Shown here: positions 11,180 to 22,301 of the stretch, piece by piece | How positions within the stretch are numbered: position 1 is the stretch's first letter | How the letters are laid out: the number at the start of each line of letters is the position of its first letter | Source: a virus | Strand: one strand, 5' to 3' | Length of the DNA stretch: 64,000 nt | Virus record (IMG/VR): IMGVR_UViG_3300020202_000064 | Coordinates: 30,000-93,999 of that record | Translations under genes and position numbers: made by a program | The notes under the pieces: generated by a model | What the model was told of the DNA's origin: nothing | The model's input: only the letters and a program-made list of their open reading frames with translations | Databases searched by the model: none

Positions 11180-11337
11180 GAAAAATTATTTTCTTTGGCG
11201 ATTTCTAAATATGATTTTTCGCCGGGTTTTTGCTGTATAAAATAATCCAACACCCTTGCTATTTCAAGGGGGTCTGTTCCTCGCTCAACCGAAGTAATTG
11301 TTAACTCCAATAGTTCCTTTTTCTTTTGATTATTCAT
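11164..11337 (-). CDS. hypothetical protein, 57 aa
   Basis: Start MNNQKKKELLEL just after tRNA-Arg(TCT). Helical and charged, ends inside the 5' part of tRNA-Thr(CGT) on the same strand. That overlap with a tRNA lowers confidence; the clean start after the upstream tRNA supports it. Confidence 0.45.
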   Translation of the reverse strand: MNNQKKKELLELTITSVERGTDPLEIARVLDYFIQQKPGEKSYLEIAKENNFSSCKH

Positions 11338-11340
11338 AGA

Positions 11341-11417
11341 TGGCGCGACCAGCCCGATTCGAACGGGCACTAAAGCTACTTAGAAGGAAGCTTGACTTTC
11401 CAATTGCCGATGGTCGC
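11341..11417 (-). tRNA. tRNA-Arg (TCT)
   Basis: Acceptor GCGACCA/TGGTCGC, G73, CCA; T-arm GCCCG-TTCGAAT-CGGGC; loop CTTCTAA gives UCU. Confidence 0.9.
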
Positions 11418-11422
11418 AAAAA

Positions 11423-11653
11423 TTATTTATCGATTCTACGGATGGATTGATGTTCCTTAACGCGCATTTTGTCAAGTTCTTTCTGACTATAAATTTTGCG
11501 CACTGCTACACCAACATATTTCTTTGGCAGAAAACCAATTGCACAATGTAAACCGATGCGAAATGGAATCTCCGCAATCAACCTTTCGCTTTCTCGCTTG
11601 GCGGCGCTTTCCTCAAATTCGCCAATATTATCATCTACCATCCAATTTTTCAT
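11423..11653 (-). CDS. hypothetical protein, 76 aa
   Basis: Small charged protein (MKNWMVDDNIGEFEESAAKRESERL ... VRKIYSQKELDKMRVKE) filling the gap between two tRNAs. It starts 1 nt before the CCA end of the tRNA upstream. No family recognised. Confidence 0.55.
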   Translation of the reverse strand: MKNWMVDDNIGEFEESAAKRESERLIAEIPFRIGLHCAIGFLPKKYVGVAVRKIYSQKELDKMRVKEHQSIRRIDK

Positions 11654-11654
11654 A

Positions 11655-11749
11655 TGGTGGTTCCTGTCAGAATCGAACTGACGCTCGGCGGCAATCTACC
11701 GCATACAGGTTATAAATCTGTCGGTGCTCTCCAATTACACTAAGGAACC
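11655..11749 (-). tRNA. tRNA, Ile (TAT) with long variable arm
   Basis: Acceptor GGTTCCT/AGGAACC, A73, CCA, T-arm GTCAG-TTCGATT-CTGAC. Anticodon arm ACAGA-TTTATAA-CCTGT gives UAU. The variable region is 20-odd nt and folds as GCGG-TAGATTG-CCGC, unlike normal class I Ile tRNAs. Confidence 0.7.
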
Positions 11750-11870
11750 AAGCGAACCGTTTGCTTGAAGGCACTTTTACCCATCTACCCACAAACTTAA
11801 TTTTGCACCACGGTTCGACAGACAACTCACCCTCACATAACAGGTATTCTTCTGTGAGGGGACTAGCAAA
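11750..11870 (-). other. spacer with 7-bp hairpin
   Basis: No gene supported. The minus strand contains CCTCACA ... TGTGAGG, a 7-bp hairpin (about 11830-11860). It could be a processing or stability element between tRNA-Glu and the TAT tRNA. Confidence 0.3.
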
Positions 11871-11948
11871 TGGCATCCACGGTGAGCCTTGAACTCACAT
11901 ATGACCAACTTGAGAGGTTGGTGACTTTGCCAATTTGTCAACGTGGAC
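11871..11948 (-). tRNA. tRNA-Glu (CTC)
   Basis: Acceptor GTCCACG/CGTGGAT, G73, CCA; arm CCAAC-CTCTCAA-GTTGG gives CUC; T-arm GTGAG-TTCAAGG-CTCAC. Confidence 0.88.
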
Positions 11949-11960
11949 AAAAGGTCCAAC

Positions 11961-12224
11961 TTAATGAACTGATTTATCAGAAGGATTTTCTATACTTCTT
12001 TGAATTACTTTTGCACTTAGTAAGGTTAGCAAATAACTACCTAACGTTGCACCTACACTCGCGGGTATTTCCACAAGCGCGCCCGTCTTAATACAGGCGA
12101 ATAACCAGCCGCCGCAGATAGTTGTAAGAATCAGCATCGTACCAAGGAACACAACCAAACGTGTCGTGGAAGGGGTGTCAGGGGCTTCTTCCAAAGCCTT
12201 GCCTAACCAAGTAAAAAAGTTCAT
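11961..12224 (-). CDS. holin-like membrane protein, 87 aa
   Basis: Two hydrophobic helices (about residues 24-45 and 56-75) after a short amphipathic N-terminus (MNFFTWLGKALEEAPDTPSTTRL) and a polar C-tail. This is a frequent layout for phage holins and similar small membrane proteins. No lysin gene adjoins it, so the holin call is tentative. ATG lies 8 nt after the GTGTAA motif. Confidence 0.6.
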   Translation of the reverse strand: MNFFTWLGKALEEAPDTPSTTRLVVFLGTMLILTTICGGWLFACIKTGALVEIPASVGATLGSYLLTLLSAKVIQRSIENPSDKSVH

Positions 12225-12232
12225 AATCTGAA

Positions 12233-12238
12233 TTACAC
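12233..12238 (-). promoter_or_regulatory. GTGTAA motif before 11961-12224
   Basis: ACGTGTAATTCAGATT then ATG; 8-nt spacing to the start codon. Confidence 0.55.
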
Positions 12239-12259
12239 GTAAGAATCAATCATTTAGCA

Positions 12260-12342
12260 TGGTGGTCAAGGTGGGACTCGAACCCACAAGCCGAAGCATA
12301 TGCACCTCAAGCATACGTGTATGCCAATTTCACCACATGACC
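12260..12342 (-). tRNA. tRNA-Leu (GAG)
   Basis: Acceptor GGTCATG/CTTGACC (one T-T mismatch), A73, CCA; class II variable arm; arm TATGC-TTGAGGT-GCATA gives GAG. Confidence 0.88.
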
Positions 12343-12381
12343 ATAACGGATTTTAACGTAGAAAGCCGCAAACGCACAATA

Positions 12382-12660
12382 TCATGTCCAATCCCAAGCG
12401 TTATCTCTTGGTTCTCTGGGTAAATTAACTTCTTCCTCGTCTATATTTCCCGCGCGTAGGTTTTTTAGTTCCTGATTGCGCTCGGCGCGACGGGCGCGCT
12501 CTCTCATTTGTTTGTGCCATTTTGGCGATTTATCCCAACGCTTTTTATCGCGAGTAAATTTCCATTCTGGCGTATTGTCAACAAGCGGTTCTCCCCACAT
12601 CATTATAGTGGGGCGCTTGCCACGTAGTTTCCTATCGTCAAAACGGCGTGTTCTGCTCAT
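12382..12660 (-). CDS. basic hypothetical protein, 92 aa
   Basis: Start at MSRTRRFDDRKLRGK; the longer frame upstream would run through tRNA-His. Very basic (many Arg/Lys) with Trp-rich segments (PEWKFTRDKKRWDKSPKWHKQM), which suggests nucleic-acid binding. No family recognised. Confidence 0.55.
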   Translation of the reverse strand: MSRTRRFDDRKLRGKRPTIMMWGEPLVDNTPEWKFTRDKKRWDKSPKWHKQMRERARRAERNQELKNLRAGNIDEEEVNLPREPRDNAWDWT

Positions 12661-12700
12661 AGGAAGAAGCCTTTCGGCTGAGGTTTGTATTGGTAGAAGA

Positions 12701-12780
12701 TGGGGTATACGACGGGGCTTAAACCCGCAGGGACCAAGCTTCACAGGCTTGTGCGTCTAATCAATTTCGCCACGTATACC
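12701..12780 (-). tRNA. tRNA-His (GTG)
   Basis: Acceptor GTATACG/CGTATAC with G at -1 opposite C73, the His hallmark, and CCA encoded. Arm CAAGC-CTGTGAA-GCTTG gives GUG. Confidence 0.92.
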
Positions 12781-12784
12781 ATAA

Positions 12785-12913
12785 CTAAGTTCATTTTTAT
12801 ATTGTCGCCTAAACCAGACTAGGCTACTTCCGCATATTGTAAATGGTGCGGAAGGTGGGATTTGAACGCCACGTATAACAATTTCCATGAAATTGGATGC
12901 TGTTAGAACTTAA
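12785..12913 (-). ncRNA. element A: TAAG/CTTAG element enclosing permuted tRNA halves
   Basis: Minus-strand order: TTAAGTTC-TAACAGC, then a tRNA 3' half (ATTGT, T-arm with loop TTCAAAT, CTTCCGC, A, CCA), a 10-nt linker, then a tRNA 5' half (GCGGAAG, TA, D-arm GCC..GGC, G, ACAAT), then ATAAAAAT and GAACTTAG. GCGGAAG pairs with CTTCCGC and ACAAT with ATTGT, exactly as a tRNA acceptor and anticodon stem would. If joined, the loop could read ..TGGAA (Pro). The outer GTTC:GAAC helix closes the unit. Either a circularly permuted tRNA gene or the remnant of a tandem tRNA duplication that lost its outer halves. Confidence 0.6.
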
Positions 12914-12963
12914 ATTGGTTTTTGATTTTATTATAAATCGTCATTTTTCTTCGTGTAATCTTT

Positions 12964-12975
12964 TATGGCAGGACC
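12964..12975 (+). repeat. direct repeat of tRNA-Trp 3' end, left copy
   Basis: ATGGCAGGAC here is repeated at 13656-13665, where it is the 3' end of tRNA-Trp read on the opposite strand. The two copies flank the HNH gene. Confidence 0.6.
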
Positions 12976-12992
12976 ATAAGGATTCGAAAAAG

Positions 12993-13718
12993 ATGATTAA
13001 ACTATTTACTGATAAAGAATTTAATTCGGCTAAATCGCGGGATTTACTACCTCTTAAATGCGAAAAATGTGGAAAAACTTTCCACAAGGCAAAACACAGA
13101 ATACAGGATGCCTTATCGACCAAGACGAAGCTTTTCTGGAAATTTTGTTCTAAACGATGCAGTGATGAACACTTCGAAACATCCATAGAAGTCGAATGTT
13201 GCCAGTGCAAACGGAAAACATTCAAAACCCCGTCAGAGATAAAAAAAGTAAGACGCCCATTTTGTTCACAATCTTGTGCAGCTTTATATAACAACACGCA
13301 TAAAACACACGGAACATCTCGTTCAAAACTAGAAAAATGGTTGGAATCTAAATTAATAACTGAATATCCCGAATTAGAATTTCATTTCTCAAGAAAAGAT
13401 GCTATCAACGGTGAACTAGATATTTATATTCCATCATTAAAATTGGCATTTGAGTTAAACGGGATTTTCCATTATGAACCAATTTATGGTAAGGAACAAT
13501 TAATCAAAATGCAGAACAACGATAAACGAAAGTTCCAAGCGTGTTTAGAAAATGGAATAGAACTATGTATTATAGATACAACGTCTCAAAAGTATTTTAA
13601 AGAAAATACCTCTTTAAAATTTCTTAATATCATCCGAGATATAATCGAAAGAAAAATGGCAGGACATGTAGGTGAGGAACCCACTTCTTCGCGTTTGGAG
13701 TGCGAGGCACATACCTAA
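12993..13718 (+). CDS. HNH-associated/zinc-finger endonuclease-like protein, 241 aa
   Basis: Start at MIKLFTDKEF, with AAGGA upstream; the earlier in-frame ATG lies inside element A. N-terminal half has treble-clef-like zinc fingers (LKCEKCGKTFHKAKHR, FCSKRCSDEHF, VECCQCKRKTFKT, FCSQSCAALYN). The C-terminal part (LEKWLESKL, INGELDIYIPSLKLAFELNGIFHYEP, LCIIDT) is a PD-(D/E)XK/Vsr-like nuclease core rather than HNH (D, E-x-N). So this is a homing-type nuclease with a Vsr-like catalytic domain. Its last about 20 codons run antisense through tRNA-Trp, and a 10-nt repeat of the tRNA end flanks it, suggesting insertion at the tRNA. Confidence 0.75.
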   Translation: MIKLFTDKEFNSAKSRDLLPLKCEKCGKTFHKAKHRIQDALSTKTKLFWKFCSKRCSDEHFETSIEVECCQCKRKTFKTPSEIKKVRRPFCSQSCAALYNNTHKTHGTSRSKLEKWLESKLITEYPELEFHFSRKDAINGELDIYIPSLKLAFELNGIFHYEPIYGKEQLIKMQNNDKRKFQACLENGIELCIIDTTSQKYFKENTSLKFLNIIRDIIERKMAGHVGEEPTSSRLECEAHT

Positions 13719-13732
13719 TATACCAATGTCCT
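13657..13732 (-). tRNA. tRNA-Trp (CCA)
   Basis: Acceptor AGGACAT/ATGTCCT, G73, CCA; arm TCGCA-CTCCAAA-CGCGA gives CCA anticodon, with A31-C39 apposition. Overlapped on the other strand by the end of the nuclease gene. Confidence 0.88.
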
Positions 13733-13738
13733 ATAAAG

Positions 13739-13900
13739 TCATTTCTGACCATCTAAATATTTCTTGAACGCATCTTGATTTTTAATCGCCGCCCGAAGTT
13801 CTGGCGTCGTATCATCAATATACAACGGACATTGTACTGGTTCGTGATAACAGCCTTCGGCCAATATTTCTTTTATTTCTTCAATAGTCGTCTGATTCAT
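13739..13900 (-). CDS. hypothetical protein, 53 aa
   Basis: Start MNQTTIEEIKEILAEG directly after tRNA-Arg(TCG) on the same strand. Acidic, helical. No family recognised; the longer frame upstream runs through the tRNA. Confidence 0.5.
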   Translation of the reverse strand: MNQTTIEEIKEILAEGCYHEPVQCPLYIDDTTPELRAAIKNQDAFKKYLDGQK

Positions 13901-13903
13901 AAT

Positions 13904-13980
13904 TGGTGCAAATGGAAGAAATCGAATCCTCAGTATAACTACGTTCGAAGCGTAGGTGGCTCTCCTGTGCCAGCATTTGC
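13904..13980 (-). tRNA. tRNA-Arg (TCG)
   Basis: Acceptor GCAAATG/CATTTGC, A73, CCA; arm CTACG-CTTCGAA-CGTAG gives UCG. Confidence 0.9.
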
Positions 13981-14011
13981 GTGTTTTAATTTTAGCTACG
14001 TATGTATTAAA

Positions 14012-14088
14012 TGGTGGGGGCCGAGCGAATTGAACGCTCACATCAAGATTTTCAATCTAGCATGCTCACCAGTTTACATCAAACCCCC
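14012..14088 (-). tRNA. tRNA-Phe (GAA)
   Basis: Acceptor GGGGGTT/GGCCCCC, A73, CCA; loop TTGAAAA gives GAA; T-arm GAGCG-TTCAATT-CGCTC. Confidence 0.88.
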
Positions 14089-14237
14089 AAAGGCTAGCAG
14101 CCACCCCACAACTTCGGGTATGTGACACCTGAAAGTCGGTTTCGCGCTATGCGCTAATCAAACACCGAACCTTTCCTTTATTGTAGTCCTTGTGGACTAT
14201 CCTTTCCTTTTCCTTACCTACGGTATTTAACCATAGG
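14089..14237. other. spacer with hairpins
   Basis: No gene. Contains TAGTCC-TTGT-GGACTA (about 14185-14200), a 6-bp hairpin, and GCGCTATGCGCTAA, which loosely resembles the 5' part of the TAAG elements but has no partner strand. Confidence 0.3.
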
Positions 14238-14423
14238 TTATGCGCGGTTACCAGCCGCGACTTTATATCCCGGTAACCAGCCGGGAAATTTGTGAAATTT
14301 ATACATAAACGGCGGATTTAATTCGTCATTCATTCTGTTACAGTGTTCTCTGAGTAATCTTTTTAAATATACAGACTTAATCCATTGGTCTATAAACTCG
14401 CGCGCTTTATCTTGTTTATTCAT
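14238..14423 (-). CDS. hypothetical protein, 61 aa
   Basis: MNKQDKAREFIDQWIKSVYLKRLLREHCNRM..., a helical basic start with a Pro/Gly-rich C-terminus (FHKFPGWLPGYK). No family recognised. Fits between tRNA-Phe and the TAA tRNA. Confidence 0.5.
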   Translation of the reverse strand: MNKQDKAREFIDQWIKSVYLKRLLREHCNRMNDELNPPFMYKFHKFPGWLPGYKVAAGNRA

Positions 14424-14541
14424 GAATATACTGGTGTGTCTTTTCGTTGGTCTCCGACTAAAATCAATATTGCTTTGACCGCCTCAGTGAAGATATTCTA
14501 TTCATCGGGTTTTCTGCGACCCACTCTCCTTTTATATTCAT

Positions 14542-14618
14542 TGGTAGTCGCAATGGGATTCGAACCCATACTGAAAAGTTTTTAAGACTTTTGCTTCTGC
14601 CGGTTGAGCGATGCGACC
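14542..14618 (-). tRNA. tRNA, anticodon TAA (Leu), short variable loop
   Basis: Acceptor GGTCGCA/TGCGACT, A73, CCA; arm AAAGT-CTTAAAA-ACTTT gives UAA; T-arm ATGGG-TTCGAAT-CCCAT. The variable loop is five bases, not the long arm normal for Leu. Confidence 0.8.
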
Positions 14619-14623
14619 ATAGC

Positions 14624-15187
14624 TTATTTCAGAGGGAATGCAACTGTATTTGTTGGGGCGCTATTGCCAGAAGAATTATAAGCGAACACACGATACCAAT
14701 ATGTACCAACGCCTATATTCGTATCAATAAATGTATTTATGTTAGCTGAAGTCGTACCTATAACAACAAAATTTTCCCCATCATTACTACGCTCTATTTT
14801 AAAACCAGTTTCGTTGCTGGAATTATCACTCCAAGTTAATGTTACTGACGATGGGACGCTTCTAACACTCACACTTTCTAATTTTAAATATGTATATAAA
14901 CTGTCAATTTTTCGCAATACTGTTTGTAAATCTGTATTTGTATTATTTTGATTTTCCTTCAAAGCCGCTAACTCTTGCAATGCCAAATCTCTCTCTTGTT
15001 GAGCTTGCGCTACAAGCTTTTCTTGATACACAGCATATAAATGCCATGCTATAATCTGAGAATTTTTTGCATCCCACGCGGATTGTGCTGGATAAGCGGG
15101 GCGAGGAACGGGGGTAATAGATGTAACTTGAGCTAATAAAACACTCGCCAAAGCAACAACGAAGAAACTAATAAGAATTTTTTTCAT
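14624..15187 (-). CDS. secreted protein with coiled coil and fibronectin type III domain
   Basis: Start MKKILISFFVVALASVLLAQ, a Sec signal peptide (about 20 residues; the Ala-Gln end fits cleavage). A Gln/Glu/Leu-rich coiled coil follows (about 60-100), then a Fn3 domain (VPSSVTLTWSDNSSNETGFKIERSNDGENF ... YWYRVFAYNSSGNSAPTNTV). Phage Fn3 domains usually bind carbohydrate or cell surface on virion proteins; a signal peptide on one is less usual and suggests export from the infected cell. It sits between tRNAs. Confidence 0.8.
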   Translation of the reverse strand: MKKILISFFVVALASVLLAQVTSITPVPRPAYPAQSAWDAKNSQIIAWHLYAVYQEKLVAQAQQERDLALQELAALKENQNNTNTDLQTVLRKIDSLYTYLKLESVSVRSVPSSVTLTWSDNSSNETGFKIERSNDGENFVVIGTTSANINTFIDTNIGVGTYWYRVFAYNSSGNSAPTNTVAFPLK

Positions 15188-15196
15188 AAAACAACT

Positions 15197-15272
15197 TGGT
15201 GCGATATAGGAGATTTGAACTCCTACCCCATGCTTGGAAGGCGCGTGTGCTGCCATTAAACACTAATATCGC
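15197..15272 (-). tRNA. tRNA-Gly (TCC)
   Basis: Acceptor GCGATAT/ATATCGC, A73, CCA; loop CTTCCAA gives UCC; T-arm AGGAG-TTCAAAT-CTCCT. Confidence 0.88.
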
Positions 15273-15282
15273 AAAATGGGTA

Positions 15283-15438
15283 TTAGCCCAAGATAAATCC
15301 GAGTACGAAAGCAACTACTGTCGAAATTAACGTCACTTTCATGCTAACCTGCTTGGCAAGAAACTGCTGAGTTTCCTCTTTGGCTTCATGCTTTAAGCGC
15401 GCTTTTGCCTCTTCAACGTGTTCTTTTAAATCGCTCAT
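15283..15438 (-). CDS. small tail-anchored membrane protein, 51 aa
   Basis: Frame MSDLKEHVEEAKARLKHEA ... with a single C-terminal transmembrane helix (LISTVVAFVLGFILG). The charged helix before it may be a coiled coil. A GTGTAA motif at 15462-15467 precedes the start by 23 nt. Confidence 0.55.
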   Translation of the reverse strand: MSDLKEHVEEAKARLKHEAKEETQQFLAKQVSMKVTLISTVVAFVLGFILG

Positions 15439-15461
15439 AGTATTGTTATGTTCAATCTAAA

Positions 15462-15467
15462 TTACAC
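15462..15467 (-). promoter_or_regulatory. GTGTAA motif before 15283-15438
   Basis: AAAGTGTAATTTAGATT, 23 nt upstream of the start codon. Confidence 0.5.
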
Positions 15468-15586
15468 TTTAAACTAGGGGCTTTACTCTAGCCCGACGGT
15501 ACAACAATCCACTGTTGCCATTGCGCCGCTTTTACATTAGCGGCAGAAAGCCCGCACATTTAAGCTGGCGGGGACTAACTATAGTC

Positions 15587-15662
15587 TGGTGGGCATGGCA
15601 GGAATCGAACCCGCAATCTTCACCGTGTAAAAGTGCCGCGTTAACCGTTACGCTACACGCCC
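15587..15662 (-). tRNA. tRNA-Val (TAC)
   Basis: Acceptor GGGCGTG/CATGCCC, A73, CCA; loop TTTACAC gives UAC; T-arm GCGGG-TTCGATT-CCTGC. Confidence 0.87.
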
Positions 15663-16081
15663 ATTTTCTATTCCAGTTTAGCCGCGATTCTGGTTTATCT
15701 CTACATTTCTCTAATCGGCTTTCGCCAATTCCCACCGTCAATAGATGGGTGCATCAACCCGGCCTCATCGATAAGCACTAATCTCAGCCTGTTTGACTTG
15801 CTACTACCATGAGGTATTAACGAATACGTGATAGGCTATGGTTTGTAAGCCATGCCGAGTATTCTCCCTATCGGTTGCTTTGTAGTCGCGAACTTCCTCT
15901 GACTTATGGAATGCGGGGTTCCTCTCTTTCGAGTTTGGCATACCGCATCTTACGTCCCTTTACGCACCATTCTCAGGCCGTGGCCTGATTAAAGGTTTCA
16001 CCTTTCGTCAGCGTAGAGTCGAATAGAAATTTTGCACCCCGGACGTAACAATCTATAGTCATTGGAATCCGGCCCGTCTCC
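15663..16081 (-). other. 418-nt spacer, highly structured
   Basis: No coding frame is supported. Hairpins include TCAGGCC-GT-GGCCTGA directly followed by AAAGGT-TTC-ACCTTT (15973-16004), AATGCGG..CCGCAT (about 15920-15950), and a tRNA-like patch near 15810-15880 with ATGG-CTTACAAA-CCAT inside GATAGG..CCTATC. It may hold a decayed tRNA or a structured ncRNA. Confidence 0.35.
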
Positions 16082-16567
16082 CTATAGTGTTTGTGCGGCC
16101 ACCCTCGACCGTAAAGTAAATTCATAATGAAGCATCGTTGAACGGGACAATAACCCCGGCGACACTTCCCAAGCTTTCGTATTATTTAGTAAAGAAATTC
16201 CTGCGTGTTCAAACGCCGCATAAATCAATTCAGAGCAAAACCACTTGTCTTTCGAACCGCCCGATTCAGATTCACGAGAAAGGAAACGAAGTACCATGGT
16301 AATGTCGTACTTCTTACCCACTTGAGCATAAAGGAACTGGCTGATTTTACGGAATTGTTCCGACGTAACTTCAGTCGAATACATATCAATATATTCGTCC
16401 TTCTTAAATTTGTACTTCTGGAATTTACGAACACCGTAAAAACGGGTGGCCTCAATTACGTCTTTTTCCAATGATATACTTACATGTGAATATTTACTAC
16501 GAGTTTGCCAACGAATAATTTTATCAAAAATAGAGTTAGCTGAATGTAATCCAATGTAGATTTTCAT
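16082..16567 (-). CDS. permuted NlpC/P60 (YiiX-like) cysteine hydrolase
   Basis: SKYSHVSISLEKDVIEATRFYGV gives the conserved His and following acidic/strand element, and DKWFCSELIYAAFEHAGISL gives the Cys in the circularly permuted NlpC/P60 order (His first, Cys late). QVGKKYD between them is also typical. Family members are amidases or acyltransferases that act on peptidoglycan or lipids. The gene stops with TAG, rare in this window and notable because the next gene upstream is a CUA tRNA; read-through would add 27 residues before a TGA. ATG is 8 nt after a GTGTAA motif. Confidence 0.8.
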   Translation of the reverse strand: MKIYIGLHSANSIFDKIIRWQTRSKYSHVSISLEKDVIEATRFYGVRKFQKYKFKKDEYIDMYSTEVTSEQFRKISQFLYAQVGKKYDITMVLRFLSRESESGGSKDKWFCSELIYAAFEHAGISLLNNTKAWEVSPGLLSRSTMLHYEFTLRSRVAAQTL

Positions 16568-16575
16568 ACATTAAG

Positions 16576-16581
16576 TTACAC
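16576..16581 (-). promoter_or_regulatory. GTGTAA motif before 16082-16567
   Basis: TTTAGTGTAACTTAATGT then ATG, 8-nt spacing; lies just after the CCA of the CUA tRNA. Confidence 0.55.
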
Positions 16582-16587
16582 TAAATT

Positions 16588-16665
16588 TGGCGCGGGAGGT
16601 GGGCTTCGAACCCACAACCTTGAAATTTAGAGTTTCCTGCTCTGAACCAGTTGAGCTACTCCCGC
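16588..16665 (-). tRNA. putative amber-suppressor tRNA (anticodon CTA)
   Basis: A fully canonical tRNA: acceptor GCGGGAG/CTCCCGC, T8 A9, D-arm GCTC..GAGC with GG, T-arm GTGGG-TTCGAAG-CCCAC, G73, CCA. Standard numbering places C34-T35-A36 in loop CTCTAAA between GGAAA and TTTCA, so the anticodon is CUA, which reads UAG. G73 would fit Gln. The adjacent gene at 16725-17003 has two in-frame TAG codons. Charging identity is unknown. Confidence 0.85.
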
Positions 16666-16724
16666 AATAAGCCCGAATAAATCGGGCACTAAATTACTAT
16701 TTCTACGATGTATCCTATTTCAAA
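16666..16724 (-). other. short hairpin spacer
   Basis: Contains GCCCG-AATAAAT-CGGGC (16670-16687), a 5-bp hairpin between the CUA tRNA and the recoded small gene. Confidence 0.35.
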
Positions 16725-17003
16725 TCAATCACCCCCTTTCTTGCCGCTCGCGGCTCGAATATGGGCAGTGCCATCCGAAATATCTATATCAACATTTTTA
16801 AATCTCAAACTTCCCTTAGTATGTTGATTATCAGGGGTTTCTTTTGTGGAAAAGGGAACTTCGCAATCCACATGGTTAACGTAGTACGTTATACCTTTTG
16901 TCTTAATTACCCACGGGGCAATTCGACTATCGAACAAGTGTGCCTTATTAAAATGGAACACTGCTTCTTTACAATTCTGAACCTAATGTTCTTCCTATTT
17001 CAT
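16725..17003 (-). CDS. hypothetical protein with two in-frame TAG codons near its start
   Basis: The uninterrupted part from a GTG at 16959-16961 encodes VFHFNKAHLFDSRIAPWVI... A better start is the ATG at 17001-17003: it lies 11 nt after a GTGTAA motif, as for other genes here, and the frame reads ATG AAA TAG GAA GAA CAT TAG GTT CAG ... straight into the same protein. Both TAGs would be sense codons if the CUA tRNA one gene away is active, giving 92 residues. If not, translation would start at GTG. No family recognised. Confidence 0.55.
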
Positions 17004-17014
17004 GTCAGTATATA

Positions 17015-17020
17015 TTACAC
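17015..17020 (-). promoter_or_regulatory. GTGTAA motif before the TAG-containing gene
   Basis: AAGTGTAATATATACTGAC then ATG at 17003; 11-nt spacing. Confidence 0.55.
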
Positions 17021-17082
17021 TTATTTTTGTTGTTCGTGCAAACTAAAATCTTCAATTTTACATCAAACCGAAGGTTTGAAAA

Positions 17083-17158
17083 TGGAGGCAGCGCCGTGAA
17101 TTTAACAACGGTTCTTCCAACTTTGCGGTCGGACGGATTAGCGTCTTCCTCCGCTGCC
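17083..17158 (-). tRNA. tRNA-like, probable Cys (GCA), divergent
   Basis: Acceptor GGCAGCG/CGCTGCC, U73 (as in Cys), CCA. The anticodon stem CCGAC/GTTGG leaves a six-base loop CGCAAA containing GCA. D- and T-arms are irregular. A second, more regular Cys tRNA is at 20570. Confidence 0.5.
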
Positions 17159-17308
17159 ATATTTATAACCTAGCAGCCCCACTGCAACCCGTATAGCATA
17201 ACAATTTAGGTTAGAACTGTTCGTATGCCGATTACTTCATGATTAGGAGCAACCCTATTATTTTTCATACTACACCCGATGGTGCCACCGATTTTTGTCA
17301 TTATAAAT
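17159..17308 (-). other. spacer with 7-bp closed structure
   Basis: TAACCTA ... TAGGTTA (about 17168-17215) pair over 7 bp and enclose GCAG-CCCCA-CTGC. No gene found. Possibly a small structured RNA. Confidence 0.3.
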
Positions 17309-17384
17309 TGGTGTGCCGTGCGAGACTCGAACTCGCGATATCCAACTTGGCAAGCTGGCGCAATAGCCACTATGCGAACGACAC
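17309..17384 (-). tRNA. tRNA-Gly (GCC)
   Basis: Acceptor GTGTCGT/ACGGCAC, A73, CCA; arm CCAGC-TTGCCAA-GTTGG gives GCC; T-arm GCGAG-TTCGAGT-CTCGC. Confidence 0.9.
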
Positions 17385-17433
17385 AGAAGAACGCCTCTTA
17401 ATCGGAGACGAGAATCGAAATTCTTTATTTTTA

Positions 17434-17508
17434 TGGTAGCACACGGCGGCGTTTGAATCCGCTGCTCCAACTTATGAGGATGGCGAGTTACCTATACTCT
17501 ACGGTGCA
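17434..17508 (-). tRNA. tRNA, anticodon CAT, weak acceptor stem
   Basis: D-arm GAGT..ACTC and loop CTCATAA give CAU; CCA encoded. The acceptor is TGCACCG against GTGTGCT, with a 1-72 mismatch and two further mismatches. A 1-72 mismatch is a feature of initiator tRNA, but the G-C run of an initiator anticodon stem is absent. May be decaying. Confidence 0.5.
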
Positions 17509-17549
17509 ATAAGGGGAATCGATATTGTTAGGTATCTATTCCCATCGTT

Positions 17550-17915
17550 TCAACCCTGCATCTTTTTCAACTTATCTTCTAACTGCTTTAATTGATATTC
17601 CAACTGATTCACTTTACCAGCATATTGCATGTTCTGGAATTGAACCAGAGCAATTTGTTTTTCAAGCTGTAATTTCTCGTTCAATAATTCATTATATTTA
17701 TCAGATACATCAGGATTTGCTTTTAACTTTGAAATCTCCAACTCCAATGAAGTAATTTTTTCTTTAAGAACATCTGATGCAGAAAGTTTTAAGAAAAAAC
17801 TATTAATAAATTCCAACTTGGTCTTTAAAATCGAAATTTCAGTATCAAGAGATTCAATTGTCGCTTTGAGTTGAAGGTTATTCGCTAATAAGGCGGTGCG
17901 TGTGACATAGGTCAT
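17550..17915 (-). CDS. coiled-coil protein, 121 aa
   Basis: Almost the whole chain has heptad-like Leu/Ile/Lys/Glu spacing (LKATIESLDTEISILKTKLEFI, VLKEKITSLELEISKLKA, LNEKLQLEKQIALVQFQ, LEYQLKQLEDKLKKM). Probably an elongated dimer or trimer; function unknown. Start ATG is 8 nt from a GTGTAA motif. Confidence 0.65.
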   Translation of the reverse strand: MTYVTRTALLANNLQLKATIESLDTEISILKTKLEFINSFFLKLSASDVLKEKITSLELEISKLKANPDVSDKYNELLNEKLQLEKQIALVQFQNMQYAGKVNQLEYQLKQLEDKLKKMQG

Positions 17916-17923
17916 ATATATAG

Positions 17924-17929
17924 TTACAC
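17924..17929 (-). promoter_or_regulatory. GTGTAA motif before 17550-17915
   Basis: TTTGGTGTAACTATATAT then ATG; 8-nt spacing. Confidence 0.55.
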
Positions 17930-17938
17930 CAAAAATAA

Positions 17939-18016
17939 TGGTGGCTACATAGGGATTCGAACCCTAAAAATTCACGTTCTAAGCGCGACACGTCTAGCCA
18001 GTTGCGTCATGTAGCC
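17939..18016 (-). tRNA. tRNA, anticodon TAG (Leu), short variable loop
   Basis: Acceptor GGCTACA/TGTAGCC, A73, CCA; arm TCGCG-CTTAGAA-CGTGA gives UAG; T-arm TAGGG-TTCGAAT-CCCTA. Lacks the long variable arm of typical Leu tRNAs. Confidence 0.8.
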
Positions 18017-18057
18017 TAATAGCACGCACAAGTTTTACGTTGTGCGGCTTTGTTGTC

Positions 18058-18138
18058 TTACTTATCGCGAGGACGGTATTCGTTGTCATAAATGACAATA
18101 AGACCGAGCATCACGAGGACAGAGAAGAAGGCAATCAT
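18058..18138 (-). CDS. 26-aa membrane peptide
   Basis: MIAFFSVLVMLGLIVIYDNEYRPRDK: one transmembrane helix plus a charged tail. A good ribosome site (AAAGGA) lies 7-8 nt upstream, uncommon in this window. Follows the 54-aa membrane protein gene by about 20 nt. Confidence 0.5.
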   Translation of the reverse strand: MIAFFSVLVMLGLIVIYDNEYRPRDK

Positions 18139-18157
18139 CTTGCTTTCCTTTCTTGTT

Positions 18158-18322
18158 TTAGGTGCCGTCGTCCCGTAGGATAGGCGGCAGATAAATGGCT
18201 GTCTTGTTTGAATTTGAATCAAAATATTTCGGGTCAGAGCCGAATGTAATAACCAAGTTATACGACAAGACAATAACGATGCCCAAATCCATCAACGCTG
18301 GATAAACGCGAATTACTTTCAT
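18158..18322 (-). CDS. 54-aa membrane protein
   Basis: MKVIRVYPALMDLGIVIVLSYNLVITFGSD... has one hydrophobic helix (about residues 10-28) and a polar C-terminus. AAAGGTGG lies about 5 nt before the ATG. Together with the next 26-aa peptide it makes a two-gene membrane unit. Confidence 0.5.
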   Translation of the reverse strand: MKVIRVYPALMDLGIVIVLSYNLVITFGSDPKYFDSNSNKTAIYLPPILRDDGT

Positions 18323-18439
18323 TCCACCTTTCGGCGCGGGCGTAATCGACCATTTTTACTTCACGTAGTAGTTGTTTTTATTTGATTTGCTGTGTGGGCG
18401 TCTACGAATCTACGATTCTATTATAAATCGAAGATTTAA

Positions 18440-18531
18440 TTGGCAGTCCTCCCCGGACTCGAACCGGGACATCTATTTCTAGATATGACAGCTTCAAAGG
18501 CTGTTGTGCTAACCAATTACACTAGAGGACA
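18440..18531 (-). tRNA. tRNA-Gln (TTG) with inserted variable-arm hairpin
   Basis: Acceptor TGTCCTC/GAGGACT with the weak 1-72 pair and G73 typical of Gln, CCA. Arm ACAGC-CTTTGAA-GCTGT gives UUG. The variable region holds a perfect ATCTA-GAAA-TAGAT hairpin, not expected in Gln tRNA. Confidence 0.85.
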
Positions 18532-18552
18532 ATAAAATCGGTCATGATTTGC

Positions 18553-18558
18553 GTGTAA
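18553..18558 (+). promoter_or_regulatory. GTGTAA motif before the HNH gene at 18580
   Basis: CGTGTAATTAAC on the plus strand, 21 nt upstream of the HNH ATG. Confidence 0.45.
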
Positions 18559-18579
18559 TTAACATGAGTAAGTTAATTT

Positions 18580-19032
18580 ATGAGTAAATCATCAGAGGCC
18601 GTTAAAAAATGGAGAAAAGCAACTAAACAACGAATAATTGATGCTATGGGCAAACAGTGTCAATGTTGTGGGTATAATAGATGTAACGAGTGTTTAGATT
18701 TACATCATTTGGACCCAAACGAAAAGGAACTAAGTTTTGGAGCGATAAGGGCGAACCCAATCGCTTGGTCGAAAATTGTAGAAGAGTTAAGAAAATGTAT
18801 ATTAGTGTGTAGAAATTGCCATGGAGAAATACATAATAACAATCTTCCAATTCCAAACAACTATTGTAAATTTGACGAATCCTATTCAGAATACAAAATT
18901 GTATCCGAAGAACTTGCGTCTAAGTGTCCAAAATGCGGGGACCAAAAATTAACAATACATAAATTCTGTTCCCAGAATTGTGCAAAACGTGGACGTAAAT
19001 TGGCTATACAGGTTGGAGCCGCCCCAACATAA
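18580..19032 (+). CDS. HNH homing-type endonuclease, 150 aa
   Basis: CQCCGYNRCNECLDLHHLDPNEKELSF ... CILVCRNCHGEIHNN is a clear HNH with two CxxC ligands. A second zinc finger is at the C-terminus (CPKCGDQK ... KFCSQNCAKRG). Plus strand, against the array. The last codons (VGAAPT) run antisense through the 3' end of the following tRNA-Asn, so the gene ends inside the tRNA. Confidence 0.88.
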   Translation: MSKSSEAVKKWRKATKQRIIDAMGKQCQCCGYNRCNECLDLHHLDPNEKELSFGAIRANPIAWSKIVEELRKCILVCRNCHGEIHNNNLPIPNNYCKFDESYSEYKIVSEELASKCPKCGDQKLTIHKFCSQNCAKRGRKLAIQVGAAPT

Positions 19033-19094
19033 GATTTTATTCTTCACTCGCTTAACAGGCGAAGCCAGCTAACTTAGCTATCTGGGTCTGCATA
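19001..19094 (-). tRNA. tRNA-Asn (GTT) with long variable arm
   Basis: Acceptor TATGCAG/CTGTATA, G73, CCA; D-arm CCAG..CTGG; arm TTCGC-CTGTTAA-GCGAG gives GUU. Variable region includes AAGA-ATAAAA-TCTT. The T-loop is GGCGGCT instead of TTCRA-type, so tertiary structure must differ. Confidence 0.7.
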
Positions 19095-19099
19095 ATAGA

Positions 19100-19173
19100 T
19101 GGCTCCGGAAATTCGGGTCGAACGAATGATTTTTGGGTAACAGCCAAACGTGATGCCACTTCACTATACCGGA
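19100..19173 (-). tRNA. tRNA-Asn (GTT)
   Basis: Acceptor TCCGGTA/TTCCGGA (one T-T mismatch), G73, CCA; arm TTTGG-CTGTTAC-CCAAA gives GUU; T-arm ATTCG-TTCGACC-CGAAT. A standard Asn tRNA beside the unusual one at 19001. Confidence 0.87.
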
Positions 19174-19179
19174 ATAAAA

Positions 19180-19259
19180 CTAAGTTCCTTGTGCCTTTTA
19201 TTAACCGGTGGCAAAGCCCGTCTCCTGATTATGTCATAGATATTGCTGTATGAACTTAA
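19180..19259 (-). ncRNA. TAAG/CTTAG structured element D
   Basis: Ends TTAAGTTC-ATACAGC and GAACTTAG pair (GTTC:GAAC). Inside, CTTTGCC and GGCACAAG nearly pair around ACCGG, recalling the acceptor/linker part of element A. Lies between the interrupted tRNA and tRNA-Asn. Confidence 0.55.
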
Positions 19260-19262
19260 AAG

Positions 19263-19400
19263 TGGAACGTATGGGATTCGAACCCATATCGACGAACTTT
19301 ACGCCCGTCTCGTAAGATTATCTTATATATTCTTTTACCGGTGCGAATATATCACTTCATCAAACTACTTGTGGAGCTTTGACCATTAAGCTAACGTCCC
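19263..19400 (-). tRNA. tRNA-like gene interrupted by about 60 nt
   Basis: 5' part GGGACGT-TA-GCTTAATGGTCAAAGC (acceptor and D-arm) and 3' part ATGGG-TTCGAAT-CCCAT-ACGTTCC-A (T-arm and acceptor) match, but they are 138 nt apart overall. The extra region contains ATATATTC..GAATATAT (8 bp) and AAGAT-A-ATCTT. CCA is not encoded and no clear anticodon arm is found. An intron-like insertion or a very long variable arm are both possible. Confidence 0.5.
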
Positions 19401-19436
19401 ATAAATCGTAGATTTACATAAACCTACGGTTTAATA

Positions 19437-19584
19437 CTAAGCGCAACGCATTTACAGCGCGCGACTGAATGGCTTTTGTATTAGGCACCATCATTTCCTC
19501 GTGCAACCCGCCTCACTTCATCTTTCGATGGTGATTGGATGTTTGCACATCATCGATAAGTTTATTATCGCTGTATGCGCTTAA
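19437..19584 (-). ncRNA. TAAG/CTTAG structured element E
   Basis: Ends TTAAGCGC-ATACAGC and GCGCTTAG pair (GCGC:GCGC). Inside: CGATAA-GTTTA-TTATCG, and CACCATC..GATGGTG enclosing CATC-GAAA-GATG. Directly downstream of element G with 3 nt between them. Confidence 0.55.
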
Positions 19585-19587
19585 AAC

Positions 19588-19730
19588 CTAAGTATAACGA
19601 AAAGTTTAGGCTCTTTTCGCGTTCCTAAAAAGCATGGAGAAGCTTTTCAATCTAACAGTTATGGAATGTCAGCCGGTGCCGCCCCGAAGGGTAGCGTCTT
19701 GTTAAGATAAGGATTGCTGTATATACTTAT
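19588..19730 (-). ncRNA. TAAG/CTTAG structured element G
   Basis: Ends ATAAGTAT-ATACAGC and ATACTTAG pair (GTAT:ATAC). Its first base is the last A of the CCA of tRNA-Ser(GGA). Interior is GC-richer (CCCTTCGGGG) with no clear tRNA. Confidence 0.55.
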
Positions 19731-19821
19731 GGCGGTGAGGGCGAGAATCGAACTCGCGGGGCAACTTTCGTCACCCTTTTGCTTTCCAAGCAAATGCATT
19801 AGGCCGCTCTGCCACCTCACC
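19730..19821 (-). tRNA. tRNA-Ser (GGA)
   Basis: Acceptor GGTGAGG/CCTCACC, G73, CCA; class II variable arm; arm TTTGC-TTGGAAA-GCAAA gives GGA. Confidence 0.92.
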
Positions 19822-19825
19822 AAGA

Positions 19826-20026
19826 TTACGCAATTTCTGCGAATCGCTTTTTAAAATAATTACTGGTCTCGTCCGGGGTGTGCCGCAAGAACAGTTGCTC
19901 GTCAATCTCATCAAACGCTCTGAAATCACCATTAGATGCGGCAATCAACGCGTCGCTAAGTTCTGGCGAACATTCGAACCTAAAGCCGAATGAATCCCAG
20001 ATTTCTTTAAATCTTTCGTATGTCAT
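19826..20026 (-). CDS. hypothetical protein, 66 aa
   Basis: MTYERFKEIWDSFGFRFECSPELSDALIAASNGDFRAFDEIDEQLF...: acidic, helical, soluble. It fills the space between tRNA-Lys(CTT) and tRNA-Ser(GGA). No family recognised. Confidence 0.55.
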   Translation of the reverse strand: MTYERFKEIWDSFGFRFECSPELSDALIAASNGDFRAFDEIDEQLFLRHTPDETSNYFKKRFAEIA

Positions 20027-20029
20027 AAT

Positions 20030-20117
20030 TGGTGGTCCCGGTGGGATTCGAACCCACAGTGAGCTTACGCTTTCGGCTTAAGAGGCCGGACTAATCAACC
20101 GTTCTAGGCACGGAACC
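20030..20117 (-). tRNA. tRNA, Lys (CTT) with long variable arm
   Basis: Acceptor GGTTCCG/CGGGACC, A73, CCA; loop CTCTTAA between CGGC and GCCG gives CUU. Variable region about 16 nt with AGC-GTAA-GCT, unlike normal Lys tRNAs. Confidence 0.7.
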
Positions 20118-20121
20118 AAAT

Positions 20122-20190
20122 TGGTGGAGATGGAGGGCTTCGATTCCCTCGTGTCCGATACTTCGTATTTCCATTCTTGTTACATGCTTA
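20122..20190 (-). pseudogene. tRNA 3' fragment
   Basis: GAGGG..CCCTC T-arm, CATCTCC, A and CCA are present, but no matching GGAGATG 5' half is found on either side. Upstream lies CTAAGCATGTAACAAG, reminiscent of the TAAG element 5' end. Confidence 0.4.
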
Positions 20191-20250
20191 GAATCACTTG
20201 ATAATATCGTTTTCGGTTTGATTCTACCAAACGACATTTGACGGTTATAT

Positions 20251-20288
20251 AATCAGCTTCTATCAACCAGTCAATTTTAAAGCTGATT
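20251..20288 (-). other. 9-bp hairpin in spacer
   Basis: AATCAGCTT ... AAGCTGATT pair perfectly over 9 bp around a 20-nt loop. The rest of 20191-20347 shows no gene. Confidence 0.35.
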
Positions 20289-20347
20289 CCCGATGATGAC
20301 GAGTGGCCCAATTTATCGGCGGTCAATTGGAACTCGGTTAGCCGCAA

Positions 20348-20467
20348 TTAAGCAGCGTAAGCATAAACTTCTGTTTTCTTAGCGTTTATTTTGTGATACG
20401 TTTTACGACGTGGCATCATTGTCGGCATGGAATGTAAACCTACGTATTGGATAGAATCCAAATACAT
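20348..20467 (-). CDS. hypothetical protein, 39 aa
   Basis: MYLDSIQYVGLHSMPTMMPRRKTYHKINAKKTEVYAYAA, basic. Lies after tRNA-Lys(TTT). Short and without motif, so uncertain. Confidence 0.35.
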   Translation of the reverse strand: MYLDSIQYVGLHSMPTMMPRRKTYHKINAKKTEVYAYAA

Positions 20468-20482
20468 CCCCAAAAGAAATAT

Positions 20483-20560
20483 TGGTGCGCCCCGAGGGAG
20501 TTGAACCCTCACGATGGTCCGCTTAAAAGGCGGCTGCTCGTCCACTGTAGCTTGAGGCGC
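20483..20560 (-). tRNA. tRNA-Lys (TTT)
   Basis: Acceptor GCGCCTC/GGGGCGC, A73, CCA; loop CTTTTAA gives UUU; T-arm GAGGG-TTCAACT-CCCTC. Confidence 0.9.
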
Positions 20561-20569
20561 ATATTAAAA

Positions 20570-20644
20570 TGGAGTCCCTAGCGGCTTACGAGACCGCGTA
20601 TGAATCTTTTGCAGAGATTTGCATTTCCTCTTTGCTATAGGGAC
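20570..20644 (-). tRNA. tRNA-Cys (GCA)
   Basis: Acceptor GTCCCTA/TAGGGAC, U73, CCA; arm AATCT-CTGCAAA-AGATT gives GCA. T-loop CTCGTAA is slightly unusual. Confidence 0.87.
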
Positions 20645-20652
20645 ATAAAAAT

Positions 20653-20755
20653 TGGCGGAAGAGGCAAGATTCGAACTCGCACGCGCTATGGTTTACATAT
20701 CGCCCTCGCATTTCAAGTGCGCTGCCGCTAGGCCATATCCTCGGCTTACTCTTCC
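20653..20755 (-). tRNA. tRNA-Ser (TGA), enlarged arms
   Basis: Acceptor GGAAGAG/CTCTTCC, G73, CCA; loop CTTGAAA gives UGA. D-loop is large and the variable arm has an 8-bp stem GCGATATG/CATAGCGC with one mismatch, making 103 nt. Confidence 0.87.
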
Positions 20756-20757
20756 AT

Positions 20758-20817
20758 CTAAGCGGGCGCAATTTTCCCTTTCGGGATGGCGATTTATATT
20801 TTGCTGTATCCGCTTGT
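20758..20817 (-). ncRNA. TAAG/CTTAG structured element H (short)
   Basis: Ends ACAAGCGG-ATACAGC and CCGCTTAG pair (GCGG:CCGC). Interior has CCC-GAAA-GGG. 60 nt, directly before tRNA-Ser(TGA) on the minus strand. Confidence 0.55.
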
Positions 20818-20873
20818 TGCTTTAATTGCGCGAAATCTTAAAACCTTCGGTTTTATTATAAATCGAAGATTTA

Positions 20874-20950
20874 TGGTGGCCGAGGGTGGGTTTGAACCAC
20901 CAACCGTTCGTCTATCAAACGAATGCACTAGCCAATTGTGCTACACGGCC
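20874..20950 (-). tRNA. tRNA-Ile (GAT)
   Basis: Acceptor GGCCGTG/CTCGGCC, A73, CCA; arm TTCGT-TTGATAG-ACGAA gives GAU; T-arm GGTGG-TTCAAAC-CCACC. Confidence 0.9.
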
Positions 20951-20955
20951 ATTAT

Positions 20956-21049
20956 CTAAGCTCTATTATTGTGCGGGCATCGAATCCCGCTCAATTCGTG
21001 TTTTTGAAACGAATTTTTATCCATTTAAGGTTTTGCTGTGAGAGCTTAT
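20956..21049 (-). ncRNA. TAAG/CTTAG structured element I with tRNA-like arms
   Basis: Ends ATAAGCTC-TCACAGC and GAGCTTAG pair (GCTC:GAGC). Inside are ATTCGT-TTCAAAAAC-ACGAAT (anticodon-arm-like) and GCGGG-ATTCGATG-CCCGC (T-arm-like) but no D-arm, acceptor stem or CCA. Confidence 0.55.
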
Positions 21050-21088
21050 TGTGGAGCTTACTCCACCGTTCCAGCAAAGCTGGAAATA
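21050..21088 (-). other. two tandem hairpins
   Basis: TTCCAGC-TTT-GCTGGAA then GTGGAG-TAAG-CTCCAC lie between elements J and I. No U-run follows, so not a classical terminator; possibly an RNA processing or stability element. Confidence 0.4.
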
Positions 21089-21146
21089 CTAAGCGCATTT
21101 TGTTTTTCATTAATCATTGAATTTTTAATTCGCTGTTAGCGCTTAT
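21089..21146 (-). ncRNA. TAAG/CTTAG structured element J (short)
   Basis: Ends ATAAGCGC-TAACAGC and GCGCTTAG pair (GCGC:GCGC). Interior GAATT-AAA-AATTC then A-rich. 58 nt; a near-minimal form of the family. Confidence 0.6.
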
Positions 21147-21163
21147 AAGGAAACGAAAACTTG

Positions 21164-21319
21164 TTATGTTTTTGGCTTCTGATTCGAAGCATATTTGACG
21201 AAACGTTTATAATTTTTTAAATCGCGGCTAGCGTCTGTGCGCCGGGAATATGGACCGTAATCTAAATCCCCCCATTGATTTTTAAACCAAAACTTTCCAT
21301 CTCGCTTGAAAATTTTCAT
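21164..21319 (-). CDS. small basic protein, 51 aa
   Basis: MKIFKRDGKFWFKNQWGDLDYGPYSRRTDASRDL...: a compact basic protein with aromatic strands, resembling small phage AP2-like or DUF proteins. Follows tRNA-Asp; no recognised family. The same style of start appears in the 71-aa protein at 2948-3163. Confidence 0.55.
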   Translation of the reverse strand: MKIFKRDGKFWFKNQWGDLDYGPYSRRTDASRDLKNYKRFVKYASNQKPKT

Positions 21320-21328
21320 ACTCTAAAA

Positions 21329-21403
21329 TGGCGGGACCAACGAGTGCTACCCTCGCTTCTGTATCGTGACAGGATACCGCTTTTGTTGATAAGCTATGGC
21401 CCC
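21329..21403 (-). tRNA. tRNA-Asp (GTC)
   Basis: Acceptor GGGGCCA/TGGTCCC, G73 (Asp determinant), CCA; arm GTATC-CTGTCAC-GATAC gives GUC. D-loop lacks GG and T-loop is GGTAGCA, so the usual D/T-loop contact is absent. Confidence 0.8.
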
Positions 21404-21509
21404 AAAATTACAAAGGTCACTCCATCCCTTTGAATGGCAGTTTATAAACGTGGAAACGTTTAAAGGTTTTATTTTTCGCCGGTTCTGCTTTACCCTGAAC
21501 CTAGAGAAG

Positions 21510-21589
21510 TTGGTAGCGCGTGTGGGGCTCGAACCCACGCATGACCGATTTGAAAGACCGGTGACTTGAACCTGCTTGTCAAACGCGCC
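21510..21589 (-). tRNA. tRNA-Glu (TTC)
   Basis: Acceptor GGCGCGT/ACGCGCT, A73, CCA; arm CCGGT-CTTTCAA-ATCGG gives UUC; T-arm GTGGG-TTCGAGC-CCCAC. Confidence 0.88.
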
Positions 21590-21710
21590 GTAAAGATATT
21601 CTTTTGTATCCATCTATTCGGATTAACAACAACCCCAATGTTCGATACAAATAAACTACAATAACAGTTGTTTTTGATATATTATTATAGAAGAACTGAG
21701 GTGGAAATAA

Positions 21711-21724
21711 GTGTAATTACACTA
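21711..21724 (+). promoter_or_regulatory. palindromic GTGTAA motif before HNH at 21726
   Basis: AGTGTAATTACACT is a perfect 14-nt palindrome; the ATG of the HNH gene is 9 nt after GTGTAA. Confidence 0.55.
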
Positions 21725-21725
21725 T

Positions 21726-22301
21726 ATGTCCACTAAAATATTATCTGAATTTTCTCGATGTGACTCCTTTGGAACGCAGCGTAAATACGTTTCTTACCAT
21801 TGTACTCGATGCGGTGTCGAACATTCCAAACCAAAACGTAACTTTTGGTTAGATAGACCCAACTTCTGTTCCGTTAACTGTGCAAGAGAACATCAAAAAA
21901 TTTTGCATTCATTTGAAGCTGAGTGCGCATGGTGCGCAAATAAATTCCACAAAAAGATATCAACAAAGGGAAATAGTCGTTCCGGTTTATATTTTTGTTC
22001 CAGACTATGCAAAGACAAGGCTCAAAGCTTGGAAGGTGGTATAAAGGAAATACAGCCAAATCATTACGGAGAAATTAAAAAGAATTATCGCGAAACTGCA
22101 TTTAAAAATCTGCCAGCACGCTGTAATCGATGCGACTTTGCTGCTTACCCAGAGATACTAGAGGTTCATCACAAAGACCATAATCACCATAATAATACCG
22201 TAGATAATTTGGAAATTTTATGTCCAAACTGCCACGAAATTCATCACTTCGAAACGAAATCGGGTAAATATGCCAAAAGTGGTGGACTGGAAGGGGATTG
22301 A
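21726..22301 (+). CDS. HNH homing-type endonuclease with zinc fingers, 191 aa
   Basis: N-terminal zinc fingers (YHCTRCGVEHSKPKRN, FCSVNCAREH, ECAWCANKFHKK, YFCSRLCKDKA) resemble those of the nuclease at 12993. The C-terminal HNH core is CNRCDFAAYPEILEVHHKDHNHHNNTVDNLEILCPNCHEIHHF with HH, N and N. Plus strand. Its last codons are antisense to the 3' end of tRNA-Ala, so it terminates inside that tRNA. Confidence 0.9.
   Translation: MSTKILSEFSRCDSFGTQRKYVSYHCTRCGVEHSKPKRNFWLDRPNFCSVNCAREHQKILHSFEAECAWCANKFHKKISTKGNSRSGLYFCSRLCKDKAQSLEGGIKEIQPNHYGEIKKNYRETAFKNLPARCNRCDFAAYPEILEVHHKDHNHHNNTVDNLEILCPNCHEIHHFETKSGKYAKSGGLEGD

What the first reader, a model, noticed from the sequence alone, without database searches (positions are those of the whole stretch)
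16588..16665. Canonical tRNA with a CUA anticodon: putative amber suppressor
Seen: every position fits standard tRNA numbering with C34-T35-A36. Known: large phages with reassigned stop codons often carry such tRNAs, with TAG read as Gln in many cases. The G73 here would suit Gln, but charging identity is not provable by eye.
Basis: partly seen in the sequence, partly recalled or inferred. Interest (0 to 1): 0.75.

Follow-up and report, generated by a model that had tools for sequence, protein, structure and literature searches.

The report
Orphan amber-reading tRNA in large phage
A large bacterial virus carries, among about 35 tRNA genes, one real tRNA that should read the stop codon UAG, but none of its genes in hand uses UAG as an amino-acid codon; this resembles several tRNA-rich phages already described and is fairly ordinary.

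Summary
The tRNA is real: ARAGORN and Rfam both find it at 16588-16665 (-), anticodon CTA at 16630-16628. At 62.6 bits it is the second-best-scoring tRNA of an array of about 35 tRNAs plus a tmRNA in a 94 kb phage fragment. The proposed recoding (TAG = Gln) is not supported by what is held. No gene with a recognised domain is interrupted by TAG. Two genes with recognised domains end at TAG, and reading through adds nothing recognisable. TAG stops are rare (0 of 54 ORFs of 200 aa or more), but not clearly rarer than in 20 sampled relatives (13 of 239, p = 0.14). A distant relative carries an unrelated CUA tRNA and uses TAG as an ordinary stop (20 of 87). XacN1 (two CUA genes per terminal repeat), phage Summit and Zeta crAss-like clade 8 are published precedents of amber suppressor tRNAs without identified targets. 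The fragment shows no terminase or other virion gene, so recoding limited to late genes cannot be excluded. Charging is undecided; G73 with U35 fits Gln, but C2:G71 does not, and the nearest tRNA bodies are Arg(UCU), Gly and Lys. It is a new member of a known kind.

The parts
16588..16665 (-). tRNA gene with CUA anticodon, CCA encoded, G73
16628..16630 (-). anticodon CUA (reads UAG)
   Evidence: anticodon at base 36 of the gene; sequence
6992..23365 (-). tRNA array: 31 ARAGORN tRNAs plus about 4-6 more seen by Rfam or by a T-arm/acceptor scan
20122..20471 (-). tmRNA, tag read by eye as AKKTEVYAYAA ending in TAA
   Evidence: RF00023, 92.1 bits; sequence
16082..16567 (-). C92-amidase-like gene 20 bases downstream of the tRNA, ending at TAG; the next in-frame stop is 27 codons on
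7806..8369 (-). methyltransferase gene (PF13578) ending at TAG; the next in-frame stop is 8 codons on
27696..30323 (-). DnaE-like DNA polymerase used to find relatives

Best explanation
The gene makes a functional-looking amber-reading tRNA that belongs to a near-complete phage tRNA set. It most likely gets an amino acid from a host synthetase (Gln most likely, Lys next) and competes with host release factor 1 at UAG. The genes of this phage that are in hand do not need it. Almost all end in UAA or UGA, so suppression costs the phage little, while the host's UAG-ended genes would be extended. Shown: the tRNA and its anticodon, its place in the array, the absence of in-frame TAG in recognisable genes, and the rarity of TAG stops. 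Inferred: expression, charging, suppression and any effect on the host.
For: The tRNA scores second-best of the array, so it does not look like a decaying relic. No gene with a recognised domain in 94 kb is interrupted by TAG; the TAG=sense extensions of long ORFs in the window's phage lie only at their first few codons, apart from a TTG-started extension ahead of an intact ATG gene. 0 of 54 ORFs of 200 aa or more end at TAG. The two domain-bearing TAG-ended genes gain no domain when TAG is read through, and E-values barely move. Published precedents are XacN1, where reading through 18 amber stops gave no new similarity (PMC5852040); Summit, whose suppressor targets were not identified (PMC9022506, abstract); and Zeta crAss-like clade 8, with CTA tRNAs and 'no suppression' (PMC12386605).
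Against: The fragment shows no terminase or other clear virion gene, and published recoding is concentrated in late genes (PMC10879173, PMC12386605). TAG/(TAG+TGA) is 0/27 against 13/75 in relatives (p = 0.018) and the TGA share is high (27/54 against 62/239, p = 0.0009), which is what a lineage shedding TAG stops would show.
Confidence: 0.62

Rival explanations
1. Late-gene recoding: TAG is sense (probably Gln) in structural and lysis genes that lie outside the 94 kb fragment, and the CUA tRNA switches them on, as in code-15 phages.
For: CUA tRNA present; TAG nearly absent as a stop in non-structural genes; TGA share raised. No terminase or other clear virion gene is in the fragment. In code-15 phages 52% carry a CUA tRNA (PMC11210395).
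Against: Two domain-bearing genes still end at TAG. TAG rarity is not clearly different from related phages without a detected CUA tRNA (p = 0.14). The one longer relative with a CUA tRNA (G033, 186 kb) uses TAG as a normal stop; the TAG=Q ORFs tested there look like fused neighbouring genes or tails past a domain end. No release-factor gene was found.
Confidence: 0.22
2. Passenger: a recent anticodon variant of an Arg-, Gly- or Lys-like tRNA carried in a fast-changing array, with no selected function.
For: The nearest tRNA bodies are Arg(UCU), Gly and Lys. No close copy was found in IMG/VR or in 30 RNR relatives. CUA tRNAs are sporadic, and the one in G033 has an unrelated body.
Against: Its model score is the second highest of the array. 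The anticodon differs from Arg(UCU) at all three positions. Its D-loop lacks the A20 expected of a tRNA-Arg.
Confidence: 0.14
3. A tRNA-Pyl or otherwise non-standard tRNA charged by a dedicated phage enzyme.
For: ARAGORN's label only.
Against: The fold is that of a canonical elongator tRNA: two-base acceptor/D linker, GG D-loop, 5-base variable loop. No class Ic Gln/Glu-type synthetase was found on the fragment.
Confidence: 0.02

Closest known systems
Xanthomonas jumbo phage XacN1 CUA tRNAs (PMC5852040)
   Same: Large tRNA array, CUA tRNAs, few TAG stops (9 of 182 ORFs of 200 aa or more), no target genes found, tmRNA nearby.
   Different: XacN1 has a tandem pair (one A73, one G73) repeated in both terminal repeats; the tRNA bodies differ (about 79% identity over the aligned part).
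Zeta crAss-like phages of clade 8 (PMC12386605)
   Same: CTA suppressor tRNA without recoding; for the related Lera, ct1yV3 and ctE7s22 genomes TAG is reported rare, with another stop soon after.
   Different: The window's phage has a DnaE-like polymerase and T4-like RNA ligases; no crAss relationship was seen, and none was specifically tested.
Code-15 phages (TAG = Gln), e.g. crAss-like phages (PMC9523058) and Lak phages (PMC8346664)
   Same: CUA anticodon tRNA is typical of them.
   Different: No in-frame TAG in recognisable genes here; late genes not available.
G033 / IMGVR_UViG_3300032267_001142
   Same: Distantly related polymerase (40-41% identity), tRNA array with CUA tRNA and tmRNA.
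   Different: Unrelated CUA tRNA body (A73), and TAG is an ordinary stop (20 of 87).

Membership tests
amber suppressor tRNA (CUA anticodon, elongator type) | Cloverleaf tRNA with CUA at 34-36 | tested here: met
amber suppressor tRNA (CUA anticodon, elongator type) | Suppresses UAG in vivo | not testable with these tools
   needs an expression assay
code-15 (TAG-recoded) phage | Conserved genes interrupted by in-frame TAG | tested here: not met
   Not met for 94 kb of mostly non-structural genes; late genes not on the fragment
code-15 (TAG-recoded) phage | TAG not used as a terminator | tested here: inconclusive
   0 of 54 ORFs >=200 aa, but two domain-bearing genes of 161 and 187 aa end at TAG; not significant against the clade sample
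code-15 (TAG-recoded) phage | CUA tRNA charged with Gln | not testable with these tools
   G73 and U35 fit; C2:G71 does not fit E. coli Gln identity (own knowledge)
orphan CUA tRNA of tRNA-rich phages (XacN1 type) | CUA tRNA in a large tRNA array, TAG stops few, no target gene found | tested here: met
   met for the 94 kb held only
tRNA-Pyl | One-base acceptor/D linker, 3-base variable loop, small D-loop (own knowledge) | tested here: not met
   linker UA, variable loop 5, D-loop 10 with GG
theta-ribozyme-associated suppressor tRNA (PMC10879173) | HDV-like ribozyme abutting the tRNA | tested here: inconclusive
   No HDV-like Rfam match and an ORF starts 20 bases downstream, but the theta motif itself was not modelled

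The most novel reading that the evidence does not exclude
The late genes of this phage, in a DnaE-polymerase lineage in which I found no published report of recoding, are written with TAG as sense, while its early genes are in a transitional state: TAG stops nearly gone and the suppressor already in place.
Probability: 0.18. Interest if true: 0.45.

Novelty: new member of a known kind. Interest (0 to 1): 0.2.

Why it matters
It adds one more case of an amber suppressor tRNA without a visible target gene. Such cases bear on whether these tRNAs act on the host or precede stop-codon reassignment, a question raised in PMC12386605. They also warn that a CUA tRNA alone should not be taken as proof of code 15.

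Tried and rejected
Whole-fragment TAG=Q reading: no gene with a recognised domain became longer by an internal TAG. In G033, selected TAG=Q ORFs with internal TAG were tested and looked like fused neighbours (two different families on either side) or tails past a domain end; a methyltransferase whose PHROG match crosses TAG proved to end at its natural C-terminus with a new ORF behind it. A search for CUA tRNAs in 46 relatives by pattern gave 14 records; those checked were tRNA-Arg(UCU), not CUA. The pattern also misses the known G033 tRNA, so absence in those relatives is not proved. Exact and degenerate tRNA patterns in IMG/VR found nothing; a last pattern was mis-specified, with too short a gap, and says nothing. 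Homologues of the C92 gene downstream are remote and gave no synteny test. The apparent tRNA-Sec match at 20657-20755 is a tRNA-Ser(UGA), not an opal suppressor.

Full report
Observation. ARAGORN finds a tRNA with anticodon CTA at window 16588-16665, minus strand, and Rfam's tRNA model matches it with 62.6 bits, the second-best tRNA of the window. The alignment shows one mispaired position, 27-43 (G-A), and otherwise a canonical elongator tRNA with encoded CCA and G73. The label tRNA-Pyl given by ARAGORN rests on the anticodon; the two-base linker, GG D-loop and five-base variable loop are not those of tRNA-Pyl.

Setting. The window is bases 30000-93999 of a 93,999-base IMG/VR virus record. 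It holds about 35 tRNA genes, all on the minus strand between 6992 and 23365, and a tmRNA at 20122-20471. The other genes are non-structural: a DnaE-like polymerase with a separate PHP-domain gene and exonuclease, DnaB-like helicase, UvsX-like recombinase, ribonucleotide reductase, ThyX-like protein, RNA ligases, NAD synthetase and nicotinate phosphoribosyltransferase, and a long run of sugar and methyltransferase genes. No ORF of 400 aa or more is a clear virion gene and the terminase model finds nothing, so the late module is probably missing.

Is TAG recoded? In the 94 kb, the 54 non-overlapping ORFs of at least 200 aa end in TAA (27) or TGA (27) and never in TAG. No gene with a recognised domain is broken by TAG. 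When TAG is read as sense, the long ORFs of the phage gain only short N-terminal extensions from alternative upstream starts. Among ORFs of at least 100 aa, six end at TAG, some of them doubtful. Two have clear domains: 16082-16567 (Peptidase C92, 36.7 bits) and 7806-8369 (Methyltransf_24, 67.4 bits). Their domains end well before the TAG, and reading through for 27 or 8 codons to the next stop adds nothing. So TAG most likely acts as an ordinary stop there.

Is TAG avoidance special? In 20 stretches of 20 kb, 19 from phages with related polymerases (G034-G074) and one from G076, reached through the RNA-binding protein, 13 of 239 ORFs of at least 200 aa end at TAG. The window's 0 of 54 does not differ significantly (p = 0.14), but TAG relative to TGA does weakly (0/27 against 13/75, p = 0.018), and TGA is raised (p = 0.0009). 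Two further relatives use TAG more: G033 20 of 87 and G031 6 of 43. I call this a hint, not a demonstration, of avoidance. These p-values were computed on a sample chosen by me and were not corrected for multiple testing.

Comparison with other CUA tRNAs. G033 (polymerase 40-41% identical) carries a CUA tRNA of unrelated sequence and uses TAG as an ordinary stop. Ten of its TAG=Q ORFs were tested, and those with family matches look like fused neighbours or extensions past a domain end. Phage XacN1 has two tandem CUA tRNAs in each terminal repeat and 9 TAG stops in 182 long ORFs. Its authors read through 18 amber stops without finding new similarity (PMC5852040). Phage Summit has a predicted suppressor tRNA without identified target (PMC9022506, abstract). 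Zeta crAss-like clade 8 phages have CTA tRNAs without suppression, and the authors discuss an anti-host role (PMC12386605). Conversely, 375 of 715 phages predicted to use code 15 carry a CUA tRNA (PMC11210395). A CUA tRNA is therefore compatible with either state.

Charging. U35 with G73 would suit glutaminyl-tRNA synthetase and U35 also suits lysyl-tRNA synthetase (own knowledge of E. coli identity elements); C2:G71 is unlike E. coli tRNA-Gln. That collection is biased, because the bacterial members were chosen by this acceptor stem. The D-loop lacks A20 of tRNA-Arg and position 35 is U, so ArgRS is unlikely. No Gln/Glu-type synthetase or RF-1/RF-2 domain is on the fragment. The amino acid stays open; Gln is the best guess.

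Verdict. This is a real amber-reading tRNA, most likely an orphan suppressor within a near-complete phage tRNA set. Recoding is not supported in the sequence held and not excluded for the missing late genes.

Noticed in passing
20122-20471 (-): Phage-encoded tmRNA, RF00023 92.1 bits; tag read by eye as AKKTEVYAYAA; ARAGORN misses it.
   Followed up: partly
20653-20755, 22280-22355, 20600-20644, 8498-8568, 17438-17507 (-): Further tRNAs not called by ARAGORN: Ser(UGA), Ala(UGC)-like, partial Cys(GCA)-like, Thr(GGU)-like, Met(CAU)-like.
   Followed up: partly
19263-19400 (-): 138-base tRNA-like element with matching ends and T arm but a long insertion around the anticodon region; possibly a tRNA with an inserted stretch.
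   Followed up: no
L087 10001-12994 (G033/G032): The DnaE-like polymerase carries an intein-like insert of about 130 aa after YSFN, absent from the window's polymerase.
   Followed up: no
L002 11498-13186 and 13409-14617 (-): NAD synthetase next to nicotinate phosphoribosyltransferase: a possible phage NAD-rebuilding pair.
   Followed up: no
AP018399.1 37201-37621 and 355996-356416: ARAGORN predicts a tmRNA (flagged tmRNA*) about 1 kb behind the tandem CUA tRNAs of XacN1 that is not among the deposited features shown for the first copy.
   Followed up: no
39873-62539 (-): Long run of genes including sugar epimerase, aminotransferase, glycosyltransferase and FkbM/Methyltransf_24 genes, suggesting glycan synthesis by the phage.
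   Followed up: no
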